Below, piece after piece: positions 1 through 4,654 of a stretch of DNA of 64,000 nt. A program made the position numbers and the translations under genes. Numbering within the stretch: the stretch's first letter is position 1; each line of letters begins with the position of its first letter. The notes below the pieces were generated by a model, which saw only the letters and a program-made list of their open reading frames with translations, made no database searches and was not told the DNA's origin. The stretch is from Lentilactobacillus diolivorans DSM 14421 (lineage in GTDB: Bacteria > Bacillota > Bacilli > Lactobacillales > Lactobacillaceae): the NCBI RefSeq assembly GCF_001434255.1, contig NZ_AZEY01000109.1, forward strand, positions 1-64,000. The letters run 5' to 3'.

Positions 1-55
1 GCACGCCAAGAGTAGTTGGGGGATCGCCCCCTGCGAGGGTAGGACGTTGCCACGC
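1..55 (+). rRNA. rrf: 5S rRNA, 3' end (partial)
   Basis: The first 55 bases match the 3' part of a lactobacillus-type 5S rRNA: GAGTAGTTGGGG-like helix, GATCGCCCCCTGCGAGGGTAGGAC and the closing GCCACGC, from memory of the family. The 5' half lies outside the window, so an rrn operon probably ends here. An intrinsic terminator follows directly. Confidence 0.9.
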
Positions 56-65
56 TAAAATAGAA

Positions 66-104
66 AGTCTTCGATAGTGCAATAACTACCGAAGGCTTTT
101 TTAG
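66..104 (+). terminator. rRNA operon terminator
   Basis: A hairpin with arms 66-78 and 85-97 (one mismatch and one G-T pair) is followed by a T run. It lies 11 bases after the 5S end and would end the rRNA transcript. I see no gene between here and the tRNA at 358. Confidence 0.85.
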
Positions 105-357
105 TATCAATATTGGTGTAGATATCTTTAAATGAAAAAAATGAGCTACCGATAGGAACCAAAACCTACATGTTTCCGGAAATGGATACTAACGGTTAAA
201 CCCAGTATGTCTAGGATCTTTTTATCAGTATAGTAATTAATTAATTTAAAAAAGAGGATTAGGTGTTATTAATATTGGAAAATGATTGCTACACTCTCTA
301 ACTTTAATTTCTATTTCCCATATTGCGTGGAAATAAATGAAGTGGGATAATTAAAAT
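105..357. other. AT-rich gap, no gene seen
   Basis: About 250 bases between the rRNA terminator and tRNA-Thr. I see no coding frame with a ribosome site and no clear promoter with acceptable spacing. Confidence 0.5.
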
Positions 358-430
358 GCCGTTTTAGCTCAGAAGGTAGAGCATTTCCATGGTAAGGAAA
401 AGGTCCCGGGTTCAAATCCCGGAAACGGCT
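358..430 (+). tRNA. tRNA-Thr (anticodon GGT)
   Basis: A full cloverleaf can be drawn: acceptor GCCGTTT/AAACGGC, D arm AGCTC...GAGC, anticodon stem TTTCC/GGAAA with loop ATGGTAA (anticodon GGT), and T arm CCCGGGTTCAAATCCCGG. The discriminator base is T. CCA is not encoded. It decodes ACC and ACU threonine codons and stands alone after the rRNA end. Confidence 0.95.
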
Positions 431-454
431 TAAAAATAAAAAATCGTAAAGGTG

Positions 455-484
455 TTGTCTTGGAATACTGCTATTTGATATAAT
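455..484 (+). promoter_or_regulatory. Promoter of the interrupted gene
   Basis: TTGTCT (455-460) and TATAAT (479-484) are 18 bases apart, upstream of the ATG at 532 with its AAAGGAG site. This is a good vegetative promoter, so the left gene fragment is probably still transcribed into the insertion element. Confidence 0.6.
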
Positions 485-739
485 TCAGGTGAACATGTGT
501 TCCCTAAAAATTTAATTAAAGGAGCTTCCAAATGACATCTAAAATGCGTACTAAATTACGTGAAAAGGGAAGTAAGAATCGTTGCTACTTTTCAGGTGAA
601 TTTAAGAAATATGGCTTTAAGTATTCAGATCGAAACAAAAGTCACGCACTCCCAACGATTTTGCTAATGAATATAAAACTCTCCGAGGAGCGCTTCGCTT
701 TTCCTCGTAACCATCAATGAAAAGAACCGTCTTCCTTTG

Positions 740-905
740 TATAATATAGGTGAAGGCGGTTTCATTGTACATCGTTATCTTTTTGGTGCTAATAAGCCCG
801 AATATAAAACCGATGCCCTTCGGTCCTCGAGATTAACCCATTGTTGCTTCGAGCACGCTTATAAAATTTCATTCCTCAAGGCTGTAAGGTTAACCGCCAA
901 CTTTT
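740..905 (+). ncRNA. Candidate IS110 bridge RNA
   Basis: IS110-group elements encode a guide (bridge) RNA in the non-coding left end. Here a TATAAT (740-745) precedes a segment closed by a perfect 7-bp stem, GGCGGTT (755-761) with AACCGCC (892-898). Inside it, GTGCT (786-790) pairs with AGCAC (852-856) and AAGC (794-797) with GCTT (846-849), enclosing an internal loop. That loop holds GAATATAAAAC (800-810), identical to the target flank at 669-679 ending in the core C, followed by a hairpin CCGA/TCGG (810-813, 820-823). This is what a left target guide should look like. CTTATAAAA at 858-866 also equals the right flank plus core (2179-2187), but with the opposite polarity to the IS621 model. 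Ends are approximate and no -35 is obvious. Confidence 0.6.
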
Positions 906-926
906 ATTCTAAATGGAGGTGCTGAC

Positions 927-2096
927 ATGGATGTCATTACAGAGAAGTGTTGTGGAATCGACGTACACCAAAAGCAGATCACCCTCACCACTTTAATTGG
1001 TCGAGCTGATCAAAAGCCCCGGAAGAACAGTCGGCGTTACGGAACAACATCACCCGAATTGCGTCAATGCGCGAACTGGCCGTTAGAAAAGGGAGTTGAA
1101 GTCGTCTTAATGGAAAGTACCGGTCAGTATTGGCGGCCGGTTTGGCAAATTTTGGAACCTTATGGTTTCAAAATGGTCTTATGTAACCCCAGAATTATTA
1201 AAAATATTCCGGGTAAAAAGACTGATCAAAAGGATTCGGAATGGATCGCCGAATTAGCTCGGTTGGGATTAGTCGCTGCTAGTTTTATTCCACCACGGCC
1301 AATTCAAGAATTGCGCGAATCAACTCGTACACGCAAGTCCCTAACTGAAACGGCTACGAGTATTAAAAACAAGATTCATAATATCCTTCAACGGTCAAAC
1401 ATTAAGTTAACGACCTATGTAACGGATATTTTTGGTAGTTCTGGCCAGAAATTGTTAGCTTTATTAATCCAAGGAAAACCGATTAACCTGCAAACAGTTT
1501 CTAAATGTATGCACGCCAAGCTAAAAGCTAAACCGGAAATGATTGTCGCTGCTTTAGACGGCAGTCTGTCTCCTAGTGATCGCCAAATTTTAAAGATTGA
1601 ACTTGCATTATTGGCAGATGTTCAACAGGCAATTCATGCCTTGGAATTACTAATTGAAGAACAACTTCAACCACTTGAAGAATTGTATCTTCGGCTTCAA
1701 ACCATTCCAGGGATTAGTAAACACATTGCCCAAATTGTGATCGCCGAAGTTGGGACAGATGTAAGCCCGTTTCCGACCGCTCATCATTTGGCTTCTTGGG
1801 CTGGCCTATGTCCTGGAAATTATGAATCAGCTGGCCAATCCAAAAGCAGTCACATTTTGCATGGAAATGTTTATTTGAAAACTGCCCTGGTAACCGCAGC
1901 GCTAGGTGCGAAAAGACAAACCTGCTCTGGATTAAAAGACTTTTTCTATCGTTTAAAAGGTCATATGAGTGCGCAAAAGGCAGTAGTCGCATTAGCTCAT
2001 AAACTGCTTAGGATTACCTATGCCATGATTGAAACTGGTTCAAATTATCAAGAGTATAGAAAAGACCAACGAGCGAAAGCGCTCGTTGGTCAATAA
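927..2096 (+). CDS. IS110-family transposase (DEDD recombinase)
   Basis: A 389-residue RNA-guided recombinase of the IS110 family. The N-terminal RuvC-like domain shows the expected acidic residues: D12 (GIDVHQK), E63 (MESTGQYW), D100 and D103 (KTDQKD). The C-terminal Transposase_20 domain (about 255-345) has IPGISKHIAQIVIAEVG, SWAGLCPGNYESAGQ with the likely catalytic Ser301, and LHGN. The length is within the normal family range and no frameshift is seen. The start is ATG 927, behind GGAGGTG. The last codons form half of a 12-bp hairpin that spans the stop codon. Its copy number in the genome cannot be judged here. Confidence 0.95.
   Translation: MDVITEKCCGIDVHQKQITLTTLIGRADQKPRKNSRRYGTTSPELRQCANWPLEKGVEVVLMESTGQYWRPVWQILEPYGFKMVLCNPRIIKNIPGKKTDQKDSEWIAELARLGLVAASFIPPRPIQELRESTRTRKSLTETATSIKNKIHNILQRSNIKLTTYVTDIFGSSGQKLLALLIQGKPINLQTVSKCMHAKLKAKPEMIVAALDGSLSPSDRQILKIELALLADVQQAIHALELLIEEQLQPLEELYLRLQTIPGISKHIAQIVIAEVGTDVSPFPTAHHLASWAGLCPGNYESAGQSKSSHILHGNVYLKTALVTAALGAKRQTCSGLKDFFYRLKGHMSAQKAVVALAHKLLRITYAMIETGSNYQEYRKDQRAKALVGQ
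2064..2091. terminator. Perfect hairpin at end of transposase gene
   Basis: Arms GACCAACGAGCG (2064-2075) and CGCTCGTTGGTC (2080-2091) pair over 12 bp around an AAAG loop, just before the TAA stop. On the plus strand no T run follows. On the minus strand the hairpin is followed by TTTTCT, so it could stop antisense transcription entering the element from outside. The function is inferred. Confidence 0.45.
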
Positions 2097-2526
2097 AATA
2101 CTTTACCTAACTAAATTATACTAATTTTTTCGGTATTTGACTACCGTTAGGTTAGTATGTCCTTTTTTAGGTTACTTTCTTATAAAAGACGAACAACATC
2201 AATTACTAACAGACCATCTCTGGTTTAATGTAACAAAAGGATTTAGATCGTTGGGAATTTTACAGCTTGGCGATCAGGTTAGTTTTAATGGTCGAGTTAA
2301 GCCTTATAAGAAGGGCTATCAAGGTCGTCGAAAAGGGATTCAACGTGAAATTCAAATTGATTACAAGATTGATCGGCCGACACAAGTGAAGCTGATAGTA
2401 TCCGTACATAATTTTGAGCGAGATCAATTTTTATCCGAAAATTGGAAAATGTGCAATCAAATATATGAAATGTATAAGAGTGATTATCAACTTCGAGGGA
2501 TTCCATTGCCATACCCTGAATACTGA

Positions 2527-2852
2527 ATTAAAGATATGTGATTGGGGGTTGCAAATATGAAAAAAAGAAATTTTGTTCAATCTTTTTAAAGTTGTGATGC
2601 AATTACTACATATCTGAATCGAAATCTCAGCATTAATTGTAAAAAAAATTTAATTGAGAAGGAGTATGTACTAAGTAACTTGTCCAAAAAGTGTGTTGAT
2701 AGCCAAAAGCCTGTCAGAAATTCGGGGGAAAAGCTTGTTGGCATTAGGCATATCCCAAAACGTTCTCTGATTTTCTTGAAGTGATCTGTTATACTTATTT
2801 TTATATAATCTTATGAAAATATGATTAATACTTGAGGCAGTAGGAGAACGAG
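2527..2852. other. Gap with a possible decayed small reading frame
   Basis: A start at 2557 behind GGGGG reads MKKRNFVQSF and then TAA. The same frame then stays open for 64 codons to a stop at 2782-2784. It could be a broken small gene, but in AT-rich DNA this also occurs by chance. A TATAAT at 2804-2809 may serve the next gene, with no well-spaced -35. Confidence 0.25.
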
Positions 2853-3698
2853 ATGAAAAGTAATCACATTGGCTGGGTTTTTGTAGAGTTGTTTAGTTTG
2901 ATTGTTGGGTTGGTGCTTGGCGTTCAATCTCAGTCGGTTAATGCGCGTGCGGCAACGCCTGTGGAGATTTTAAATCAGCAAATCGTTGATTATCACACTA
3001 AAATTGGTCCCAATTTAAAACACAATTGTGGGATATATTCCTCTGGGGGCTATGGAACATCGCCGGATAATTTTGAACCAATTGCGTATGGACGGAAATT
3101 TCACGAGCAAGACGTTCATATTACCCGTGAAGAGCAAACTAACCAAGGTACTTGGCTAAAGTTTACTCATCACACGTTTACCGGTTGGATTCATCAAAAT
3201 GGGACAGTAAAGAGCAACTACCGATTAACTGCGCCATTGATCGCACAACGGCCAGAATTACCAACTGGTTGTGAAATAACGGCCGTTACTATGATGCTGC
3301 AGTTTGCCGGCCAACAAGTGACCAAATTACAACTGGCTAAAGAGATGCCACGAAGCCATAATCCTAACAAAGGATTTGTTGGCAGTCCTTATTCAAGGAA
3401 TGGCTGGTATGTTTATCCGGCTGGCTTAACCAAACTTGTGGCTAAACACGTTGGCACTTCAGTTAATATGACGGGAAAATCGCTTTCAGCAGTTAAAATG
3501 CAAATCCATCAAAATCATTTGGCTGTTGTATGGTTGGCAAACTTTGACGGGTTTGCAAATCATGCCGTTACCGTGACCGGCTATTCCAAGTCACGTATTT
3601 ATTACAATGATCCGTGGACGGTTAGAAGATCAAGTTTATCGAATCATACATTTCAAAAGCATTGGCGTTTAGATGCCTATCGAGCGTTGAGTTATTAA
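2853..3698 (+). CDS. Secreted C39-like cysteine peptidase family protein
   Basis: A 281-residue exported protein. Residues 1-33 form a signal peptide (hydrophobic VELFSLIVGLVLGV, then ...NARAA). Residues about 95-120 look like an SH3/GW-type wall-binding segment (GTWLKFTHHTFTGWIHQNG). The C-terminal half is a peptidase C39-like (YvpB-type) domain: Cys140 in ELPTGCEITAVTMML, His238 in NHAVTVTGY and Asp253 in YNDPW form the likely catalytic triad. The start is ATG 2853 behind GTAGGAGAACGAG. The NlpC/P60 gene follows at once, so the two probably work together outside the membrane on peptides or peptidoglycan. The substrate is unknown. Confidence 0.8.
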   Translation: MKSNHIGWVFVELFSLIVGLVLGVQSQSVNARAATPVEILNQQIVDYHTKIGPNLKHNCGIYSSGGYGTSPDNFEPIAYGRKFHEQDVHITREEQTNQGTWLKFTHHTFTGWIHQNGTVKSNYRLTAPLIAQRPELPTGCEITAVTMMLQFAGQQVTKLQLAKEMPRSHNPNKGFVGSPYSRNGWYVYPAGLTKLVAKHVGTSVNMTGKSLSAVKMQIHQNHLAVVWLANFDGFANHAVTVTGYSKSRIYYNDPWTVRRSSLSNHTFQKHWRLDAYRALSY

Positions 3699-3715
3699 TT
3701 GAGGGGTTAAGAAAA

Positions 3716-4654
3716 TTGATTAAACAAATAAAAGTTTGGGGATTAAGCTTGGCAGTGGTGGCCGTGTTTCTAGGAGGTCACATGGTTGCTCATGCGAATA
3801 CTCAAAACACTACCAGCTTTTTAGAGACCGAAGATAATAAATTATGGAGTGGGCAATCAACTGTCCCTTCTGTAAGCAGCAATCACCTTGATAAGGCGAA
3901 TAGAAAAGCAAAAGCATATCAAAACCCTAAACGCTACTATCAGGTTCAATCGCAGCAAATTAAACCATTTGGGCACATTGGTTATACCGTCAAAAGGCAT
4001 TTTGAAGGAATTAAGACTTGGCTTATTATGCGCAAAATGGGGACTTATACTGGGTACAACAATTATAACCAAGCAACCTTTAATGCTGTCAAACGATTTC
4101 AACGACGCCACGGGTTAAAGGTGACTGGCAATGTGAATGAAAAGACCTGGTTGAGAATGGGATTTACAAAACAGTCATGGACGGCAATTGATAGTTATGT
4201 TGCACCACTGAGAGCCAGTATTTGGCAAGGTCGTCAAGCACACATTCAGGCAATGATTAAACAGGCTTATCGTTATCTTGGTAATCCGTACTTAGTTGGT
4301 TCATCAAGTAGTCCCAAATATGGCACTGATTGTTCTGGGCTGGTAATACAGGCACTTTATGCAGGTGGAATTAATCCCGCACCGATCAGTGCAATTCATC
4401 ATGCTTATCCAGGTAATGAGTGGAACAGCCGCAATCTTTGGGCAAGTGAGAAGTTCAAGCACGTTGCCTATCATCACCGGCAACGAGGTGACCTCGTGTT
4501 TTATTATCAACCTGGGACTCATGTGATTTGGCATGTGGCAATCTACCTTGGAAAAAATAAAGTGATTGAAAGTTGGCCACCAAGAATTATGATCCAGCCA
4601 ATCAAGAATGGCCAACGATCTGATGTTGCTGGTATTGCGCGGCCATTTAATTAA
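3716..4654 (+). CDS. Secreted NlpC/P60 peptidoglycan endopeptidase
   Basis: I place the start at TTG 3716, behind GAGGGG (3701-3706), just after the previous stop; upstream in-frame codons lie inside the previous gene. The product is then 312 residues. Residues 1-28 are a signal peptide (...LSLAVVAVFLGGHMVAHA). Residues about 95-150 form a peptidoglycan-binding domain (NQATFNAVKRFQRRHGLKVTG). The NlpC/P60 domain begins near 175, with catalytic Cys206 in GTDCSGLV and His273 in WHVAIYLG. Such enzymes cut peptide stems in the wall. It is probably co-transcribed with the C39-like gene. A bidirectional terminator follows at 4817. Confidence 0.9.
   Translation: MIKQIKVWGLSLAVVAVFLGGHMVAHANTQNTTSFLETEDNKLWSGQSTVPSVSSNHLDKANRKAKAYQNPKRYYQVQSQQIKPFGHIGYTVKRHFEGIKTWLIMRKMGTYTGYNNYNQATFNAVKRFQRRHGLKVTGNVNEKTWLRMGFTKQSWTAIDSYVAPLRASIWQGRQAHIQAMIKQAYRYLGNPYLVGSSSSPKYGTDCSGLVIQALYAGGINPAPISAIHHAYPGNEWNSRNLWASEKFKHVAYHHRQRGDLVFYYQPGTHVIWHVAIYLGKNKVIESWPPRIMIQPIKNGQRSDVAGIARPFN

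What the first reader, a model, noticed from the sequence alone, without database searches (positions are those of the whole stretch)
740..905. Bridge RNA candidate whose guide matches this insertion site
The non-coding left end contains GAATATAAAAC (800-810), identical to the target flank 669-679 up to and including the C of the CT core. It sits in a loop enclosed by complementary stems (786-797 with 846-856) within an outer 7-bp stem (755-761/892-898). In IS110-group elements a left target guide is expected to have just this identity to the top strand. An 11-base match within about 250 bp is unlikely by chance even in AT-rich DNA. The right target guide is not clear: CTTATAAAA (858-866) matches the right flank, but in the same rather than the complementary sense.
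Basis: partly seen in the sequence, partly recalled or inferred. Interest (0 to 1): 0.8.

Follow-up and report, generated by a model that had tools for sequence, protein, structure and literature searches.

The report
Mirrored bridge RNA of lactobacillus insertion element
A small jumping gene in a lactobacillus carries, just before its enzyme gene, an RNA whose eight-letter guide spells out the place where it jumped in; in related elements guide and landing site change together, and the guides are arranged in the reverse order to the best-studied example.

Summary
An IS110-type element (about 679-2187) carries a bridge-RNA gene (start inferred near 752) upstream of its transposase, and 802-809 is the left target guide. 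Of 78 related RNA rows, 74 had a recognised left end; over their 55 distinct guide-flank pairs, guide and left flank agree at 4.44 of 5 variable positions, against 2.45 when guides are dealt to other sites (0 of 20,000). Agreement stops sharply outside the guide.

Three details change. (1) The core is not CT: the exchange lies in an A-tract, shown by a gap-free junction of the re-joined host gene against an intact homologue. (2) CTTATAAAA (858-866) is the left donor guide, matching the element's own right end (2179-2187). (3) The right target guide is the 5' side of the same loop (775-784): supported over 24 guide classes (0 of 10,000), but weakly or not in several, and not in G450.

The order, right guide then left, is the one published for IS1111 elements, yet the RNA lies where IS110 elements carry it. 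I call it a new variant of a known kind. Expression and activity were not tested; the right donor guide was not resolved.

The parts
669..678 (+). left target flank GAATATAAAA; 671-678 (ATATAAAA) is the 8-nt left target, the A-tract 675-678 holds the crossover
   Evidence: identity with 800-809; agreement limited to 8 target positions in the panel; empty-site fit
679..2187 (+). IS110-type element (one copy of the ambiguous AAAA counted in it)
   Evidence: joining 678|2188 gives an ORF that aligns without a gap at the junction to intact homologue L050, score 522; a CT join needs a 3-residue gap, score 510
684..707 (+). left-end hairpin (CGAGGA/TCCTCG) between the right-donor start and the promoter; role unknown
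   Evidence: read by eye; hairpins of other sequence at the same place in relatives, by eye
717..722 (+). -35-like ATGAAA, 17 nt before the -10
   Evidence: best hexamer in the allowed range, no shuffle control
740..745 (+). -10 TATAAT, 6 nt before the RNA model start
752..905 (+). bridge-RNA gene; 5' end inferred from the promoter, 3' end not determined (outer stem closes at 898)
   Evidence: covariance model R1 and pair counts; fold
755..761 (+). outer stem, 5' strand (pairs with 892-898)
770..815 (+). target-binding loop: stem 770-774/811-815, inner hairpin 785-790/795-799
   Evidence: pair counts
775..784 (+). right target guide (5' side of the loop, TTATCTTTTT); pairs in part with core AA and right target GACGA on the top strand
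   Evidence: 24 guide classes, 40 sites, 0 of 10,000 permutations (22 classes); partial in the window, 3.5 of 5
802..810 (+). left target guide ATATAAAA (802-809) plus C810, which matches the element's first base rather than the target
817..889 (+). donor-binding loop: closing stem 817-831/875-889, inner hairpin about 842-857
   Evidence: cognate duplex -12.3 against -7.9 kcal/mol permuted, 0 of 20,000, 30 RNAs; fold of the window RNA
859..866 (+). left donor guide TTATAAAA, identical to the element's right end
   Evidence: 7.9 of 8 against 5.96 permuted, 0 of 20,000, 20 rows; best same-sense place in the scan, z 7.7
927..2096 (+). transposase, 389 aa, DEDD (D12, E63, D100, D103) and candidate catalytic serine S301
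   Evidence: Pfam and NCBIfam IS110; alignments to IS621 8wt6 and ISCro4 9t56; positions
2180..2187 (+). left donor TTATAAAA = right terminus of the element
   Evidence: homologous ends in multi-copy relatives
2188..2195 (+). right target flank GACGAACA
532..678 (+). 5' part of the interrupted host ORF (plasmid-type hypothetical protein)
2188..2526 (+). 3' part of the interrupted host ORF

Best explanation
An IS110-family element encodes, in its left end under its own promoter, a two-loop bridge RNA bound by the DEDD/serine transposase (inferred). The target loop carries on its 5' side the right target guide (775-784, pairs with the top strand) and on its 3' side the left target guide (802-809, pairs with the bottom strand). 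The donor loop carries the left donor guide (859-866) on its 3' side. The recombinase brings the circular element (right end joined to left end) to the target and exchanges strands within a shared AA of an A-tract, giving GAATATAAAA|CTCTCC on the left and CTTATAAAA|GACG on the right. C810, next to the left guide, fits the incoming donor base rather than the target and may act like the handshake bases of IS621 (inferred). Shown by sequence comparison: boundaries, structure, and agreement of the left target, left donor and right target guides with DNA. Inferred: transcription, protein binding, catalysis, the exact core dinucleotide and the right donor guide.
For: Left target guide: 4.44 of 5 variable positions against 2.45, 0 of 20,000; one site per guide 4.17 against 2.38, 0 of 20,000; the two positions beyond the guide are at chance, 0.47 of 2 against 0.50; perfect over the 8 target positions in 49 of 74 rows and 34 of 55 distinct pairs. 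Scan of all RNA columns, 40 distinct RNAs: left target z 13.5 at column 61, next best 3.0 same-sense and 3.7 complementary; left donor z 7.7 at column 129, next best 3.8, 18 RNAs. Right target guide: 2.81 of 5 against 1.90 over 24 classes and 40 sites, 0 of 10,000, also without wobble and without the best three classes; same-sense control 2098 of 5000. Left donor guide: 0 of 20,000. Structure: pair counts, donor-loop stem, outer stem. Promoter. Empty site. Right ends of multi-copy relatives diverge just after the left-donor sequence. Transposase family and active site.
Against: 25 of 74 rows have an imperfect left guide, 11 of them with 2 to 5 mismatches; a few of these have deletions or misaligned loops. 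Right guide: the window scores 3.5 of 5, L009, L141 and one G418 site 1 to 1.5, L005, L142 and L147 about 2, most G407 kinds 1 to 3; the eight G450 right flanks fit their own two guide types no better than two random types (2.00 against 2.23). In the scan the right-target peak at the predicted place is the best complementary one but only z 3.1, and an unexplained same-sense peak of z 4.0 lies at column 159; right-donor scans gave scattered peaks up to z 6.5 in both senses, which I read as relatedness of the sequences, so z values of that size alone prove little. Only the window, L008, L023 and L033 of the nine folds printed show the whole two-loop fold as minimum-energy structure, by my reading. 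Stem P1 (752-757/816-821), which pairs in 94% of cells, overlaps the other stems. No expression data.
Confidence: 0.88

Rival explanations
1. Standard IS621-like layout: CT core, left guide on the 5' side and right guide on the 3' side.
For: CT stands at 679-680 and at 2179-2180; the RNA is upstream as in IS110 elements.
Against: The CT join leaves a 3-residue insertion against the intact homologue; L006 and L007 have no CT at the corresponding place of the right end; right ends of multi-copy relatives extend through the A-tract; the left guide is on the 3' side of the loop closed by the covarying stem.
Confidence: 0.05
2. The identity is a side effect of A-rich targets and an A-rich RNA, not guiding.
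For: Nearly all guides end in A-rich sequence; 11 of 74 rows have two or more mismatches.
Against: Permutation of guides among classes keeps the A-richness and never reaches the observed agreement; guides with other bases match flanks with the same bases, for example CTAGGAAA in L116, CGGGAAAA in L139 and GGGACAAA in L121; agreement ends at the eighth target base.
Confidence: 0.02
3. The right target guide is elsewhere, and the 5' loop signal is chance or an A-tract effect.
For: Modest scan peak (z 3.1); poor pairing in several classes; no signal in G450; the register rule was set after seeing pairs.
Against: 0 of 10,000 permutations in all settings, also without skipping A bases, without wobble, and without G483, G685 and L121; all four G483 sites carry GAG after the A-run as predicted, the two G685 sites TTCGA and TTTGA.
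Confidence: 0.15

Closest known systems
IS621 bridge RNA (IS110 group; Durrant 2024 PMC11208160, Hiraizumi 2024 PMC11208158; passages read)
   Same: DEDD plus serine recombinase, RNA upstream of it in the left end, target loop and donor loop, left guides pair with the bottom strand and right guide with the top strand, left target guide of about 8-9 nt, short right guide
   Different: guide order inside the target loop is mirrored (right guide 5', left guide 3') and the left donor guide is on the 3' side of its loop; exchange in an A-tract instead of CT; predicted promoter wholly inside the left end instead of split across the circle junction
IS1111-group seekRNA (ISEc11, ISPa11, ISKpn4; Siddiquee 2024 PMC11187229; abstract, sections 6, 12, 13, 14 and passages read)
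   Same: the top-strand match precedes the bottom-strand match in the RNA
   Different: IS1111 RNAs usually lie downstream of the transposase and those elements have subterminal inverted repeats; here the RNA is upstream, and inverted repeats were not searched for
ISEc21 seekRNA (IS110 family; same paper)
   Same: upstream RNA, IS110-type transposase of near size
   Different: in ISEc21 the bottom-strand match comes first; here it comes second

Membership tests
IS110 family element | DEDD_Tnp_IS110 and Transposase_20 domains | tested here: met
   Pfam E 2.8e-25 and 2.5e-18; NCBIfam NF033542 249.4 bits, cut-off 140
IS110 family element | DEDD residues and C-terminal serine | tested here: met
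   D12, E63, D100, D103, S301, matched by eye in alignments to IS621 8wt6 and ISCro4 9t56
IS110 group | long non-coding left end upstream of the transposase | tested here: met
   248 bases (679-926) before the transposase, 91 after it
bridge RNA | conserved two-loop structure | tested here: met
   minimum-energy folds of several relatives differ
bridge RNA | left target guide co-varies with insertion site | tested here: met
bridge RNA | right target guide pairs with top strand of right target | tested here: met
   over the panel; weak in the scan and absent in G450
bridge RNA | left donor guide identical to element right end | tested here: met
   partly circular for single-copy elements
bridge RNA | right donor guide pairs with left end | tested here: inconclusive
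   only scattered peaks
bridge RNA | expressed RNA bound by the recombinase and needed for recombination | not testable with these tools
   only a promoter prediction
IS621-type bridge RNA | left guide on 5' side of the loop | tested here: not met
   left guide is on the 3' side
IS621-type bridge RNA | CT core (second T nearly invariant) | tested here: not met
   A-tract exchange
IS1111 group | RNA downstream of the transposase | tested here: not met
   RNA is upstream
IS1111 group | long subterminal inverted repeats | not tested
   no search run

The most novel reading that the evidence does not exclude
A clade of IS110 elements in Lactobacillales uses an upstream bridge RNA with mirrored guide order, an A-tract core and an own internal promoter. 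It breaks the published link between RNA position and guide order, and its left guide carries one extra base that reads the donor, so the RNA fits the integrated left junction better than the empty target.
Probability: 0.6. Interest if true: 0.65.

Novelty: new variant of a known kind. Interest (0 to 1): 0.55.

Why it matters
Bridge recombinases are being developed as programmable DNA insertion tools. A clade with reversed guides and an A-tract core would show that the guide layout is not tied to where the RNA lies in the element, give a natural set of re-targeted guides (24 distinct left guides here), and offer a different core. It also shows how element ends go wrong when the crossover lies in an A-tract: a misplaced end turns a donor guide into an apparent odd target guide.

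Tried and rejected
CT core and right flank TTATAAAAG: tried first and dropped after the multi-copy right ends and the empty-site fit. A same-sense right guide at 858-866: rejected, it is the left donor guide. Right donor guide: CCTCGAGATT against the left end by eye, and a scan, were inconclusive. Rfam: in 300-2700 only the tRNA and a sub-threshold U12 match at 2035-2202; in 1-3000 at gathering thresholds only the tRNA. A viral-contig scan found no relative. Plasmid collection: no DNA match; 661 records with protein matches, all below 60% identity. The RNA model found nothing in 11 more distant loci (11 of the 15 distant loci L034-L048). Three plasmid loci (L214-L216) were fetched but not analysed.

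Prior reports were sought (open-licence papers only). In the listings, abstracts, passages and sections that I saw there is no statement of an upstream RNA with this guide order, but figures are not held and the six diverse RNAs of Durrant Fig. 6 could not be seen, so novelty of the order is not proven.

Rows dropped before counts. Of 78 RNA rows, 4 had no recognised left end (L145, L146, one of two L111 hits, L119), leaving 74; left-end start motifs were chosen by hand and all begin with C, so agreement at the last of the 11 positions is nearly by construction. The scans used 40 distinct RNAs whose guide ends in C, 19 with a right flank and 18 with a right end; there L111 was given the right flank of L115, which has the identical RNA. 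The right-target table was put together by hand. (22 classes, 34 sites) left out L006 (right end altered), L019 (end ambiguous), G441, G450 and several G407 kinds, and held a one-base slip for L145. One search repeated it with the slip mended and L019, G441 and all G407 kinds in (24 classes, 40 sites), and tested G450 apart, where the result was negative. The fixed register and the skipping of up to two A were set after seeing the pairs. The left-donor table has 20 hand-picked rows; in single-copy elements the right end was recognised partly by likeness to the guide, so it is independent only for multi-copy relatives and the window. Promoter hexamers are best picks in a range without a control.

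Full report
What was checked. GAATATAAAAC stands at 669-679 and 800-810 and nowhere else in the window; the flank suffix appears in 3 of 20,000 shuffled left ends. The element between is IS110-type by Pfam and NCBIfam, with DEDD residues and a serine aligned to IS621 and ISCro4. It is the only full copy in its genome; the two other DNA matches are short and belong to apparent, more distant IS110 relatives (L002, L003). The genus is Lentilactobacillus by inference: G016 contig 5 has the same length, 783,724 bases, as the L. raoultii contig.

Relatives. DNA searches of 24 genus genomes and 397 family genomes gave 3 and 18 genomes with a match, own genome included. Fourteen left-end RNAs were aligned and folded; 12 were used for a curated structure and a covariance model R1. 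Of 21 pairs, 8 show changes on both sides and 93.6% of cells pair against 87.6% in shuffles, 0 of 500 as high; the count of further pair types is not above shuffles (86 of 500). R1 hit 14 of 397 family genomes and 24 of 395 order genomes, own genome included in both. 78 RNA rows from 77 sources were aligned.

Left target guide. In the 74 rows with a recognised left end, the 3' side of the target loop agrees with the left flank: 49 rows perfect, 14 with one mismatch, 11 with two to five. Among 55 distinct guide-site pairs, matches by position are 14, 12, 44, 44, 50, 51, 55, 55, 52, 53, 51: agreement begins sharply at the third of these positions. The last position is the C that is both the element's first base and the base after the guide, so the target part is 8 nt. 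Permutation of guide classes never reaches the observed agreement (0 of 20,000). Genomes with several copies show it directly: all 8 left flanks fetched from G450 end in ATAAAAAAC with guide ATAAAAAAC, all four of G483 in ACAAAAAAC; in G407 eight copies have AACTAAAAC in guide and flank, while the ninth has AACAAAAAC in both. In G622 three of five fetched copies match perfectly and two have two mismatches.

Element ends. Right ends of multi-copy relatives (matches: G407 13, G450 8, G483 4, G418 2) that could be aligned are alike up to ...TTTTCAAATAAAA and then differ. In the window the corresponding end is after CTTATAAAA (2187). Joining 678 to 2188 gives an ORF aligning without a gap at the junction to an intact homologue, L050 of G016, score 522; the CT join needs a three-residue gap, score 510. 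So the crossover lies in AAAA; that the core is AA is inferred.

Donor guide. The RNA's TTATAAAA (859-866) equals the element's right end (2180-2187). In 20 rows the agreement is 7.9 of 8 against 5.96 permuted, 0 of 20,000; forms include AAACAAAA, GTATAAAA, ATGAAAAA and AATAAAAA. In a scan over all RNA columns it is the best same-sense place, z 7.7, 18 RNAs.

Right target guide. The 5' side of the target loop, read as its reverse complement in a fixed register (three bases, AA core, then right target), fits the right flank better than permuted guides: 2.81 of 5 against 1.90 over 24 classes and 40 sites, 0 of 10,000; the same without wobble (2.43 against 1.59), with up to two extra A allowed (3.05 against 2.20), and without the best classes G483, G685 and L121 (2.79 against 1.95) (first form, with a same-sense control at chance). 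It is strong (3.5 or more of 5, A-skipping allowed) in L007, L008, L014, L121, L131, L148, G441, G483, G685, three of four G622 sites, one of eight G407 kinds and the window; low (2 or less) in L005, L009, L141, L142, L147, one of two G418 sites and two of eight G407 kinds. L141 would fit with a one-base shift that the rule does not allow. The eight G450 right flanks do not fit their two guide types better than random types (2.00 against 2.23; 3535 of 5000). In the scan the predicted place has the best complementary score, but only z 3.1, and a same-sense peak of z 4.0 elsewhere is unexplained. The right guide thus seems real over the panel but loosely kept.

Right donor guide. Scans of the left end against the RNA gave scattered peaks up to z 6.5 in both senses; I draw no conclusion from them.

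Fold and promoter. The window RNA folds into an outer stem (755-761/892-898), a target loop (770-774/811-815) and a donor loop (817-831/875-889). Donor-loop and outer stems are supported by cognate-against-permuted duplex energies: -12.3 against -7.9 (30 RNAs) and -10.8 against -7.1 kcal/mol (42 rows), 0 of 20,000 each. Minimum-energy folds of several relatives differ. TATAAT lies 6 nt before the RNA start with ATGAAA 17 nt further up; 34 of 49 rows listed have a -10 with at least 5 of 6 matches, a -35 with at least 4 and a spacing of 16-17, my count, no control. In IS621 the promoter is split across the circle junction (PMC11208158, passages).

Comparison with the literature. Durrant et al. 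[quoted passage not shown] Siddiquee et al. (PMC11187229, abstract, sections 6, 12, 13, 14 and passages) find the top-strand match first in IS1111 and second in the one IS110 element they tested, with the RNA usually downstream in IS1111. Here the RNA is upstream and the top-strand match comes first. The TIGR-Tas paper (PMC12045711, passages) showed nothing on guide order in what I saw. Whether the mirrored order is already drawn in a published figure I could not check.

Verdict. A bridge RNA by structure and by agreement with target and donor; function untested. A new variant of a known kind, with moderate confidence in the novelty of the layout.

Noticed in passing
window 1-60 and 358-430: The contig starts in what looks like the 3' end of a 5S rRNA gene (recalled; no Rfam match there), followed by a tRNA-Thr (GGT) gene; the element sits just downstream.
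   Followed up: partly
window 532-678 and 2188-2526: The interrupted host gene resembles hypothetical proteins on Ligilactobacillus salivarius plasmids (best hits about 51-53% identity over 58-59% of the query).
   Followed up: partly
L002 427 onward and L003 about 1953 downward: Two other, near-identical IS110-like elements of the same genome carry guide GAGAGACAAAC and sit at GTGAGACATAC flanks, inside what looks by eye like a repeated gagtgggaca-type sequence; L002 is partly masked.
   Followed up: partly
L103-L110 (G407): Seven of these eight copies sit near the end of the same repeated, terminally inverted sequence (by eye), as if the guide had settled on a repeat.
   Followed up: no
L195, L197, L201 (G407 contig 11): Three element right ends lie in tandem 434 bases apart.
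   Followed up: no
L111 501-863: Two bridge-RNA copies 244 bases apart at one site.
   Followed up: no
window 752-757 and 816-821: A covarying stem that overlaps the outer and donor-loop stems; possibly an alternative fold.
   Followed up: no
L163, L167, L169, L171, L173-L176 (G450): Eight right flanks that do not fit the genome's two right-guide types.
   Followed up: partly
window 2853-3698 and 3662-4654: C39-like peptidase with GW domain, and an NlpC/P60 protein with a peptidoglycan-binding domain.
   Followed up: partly
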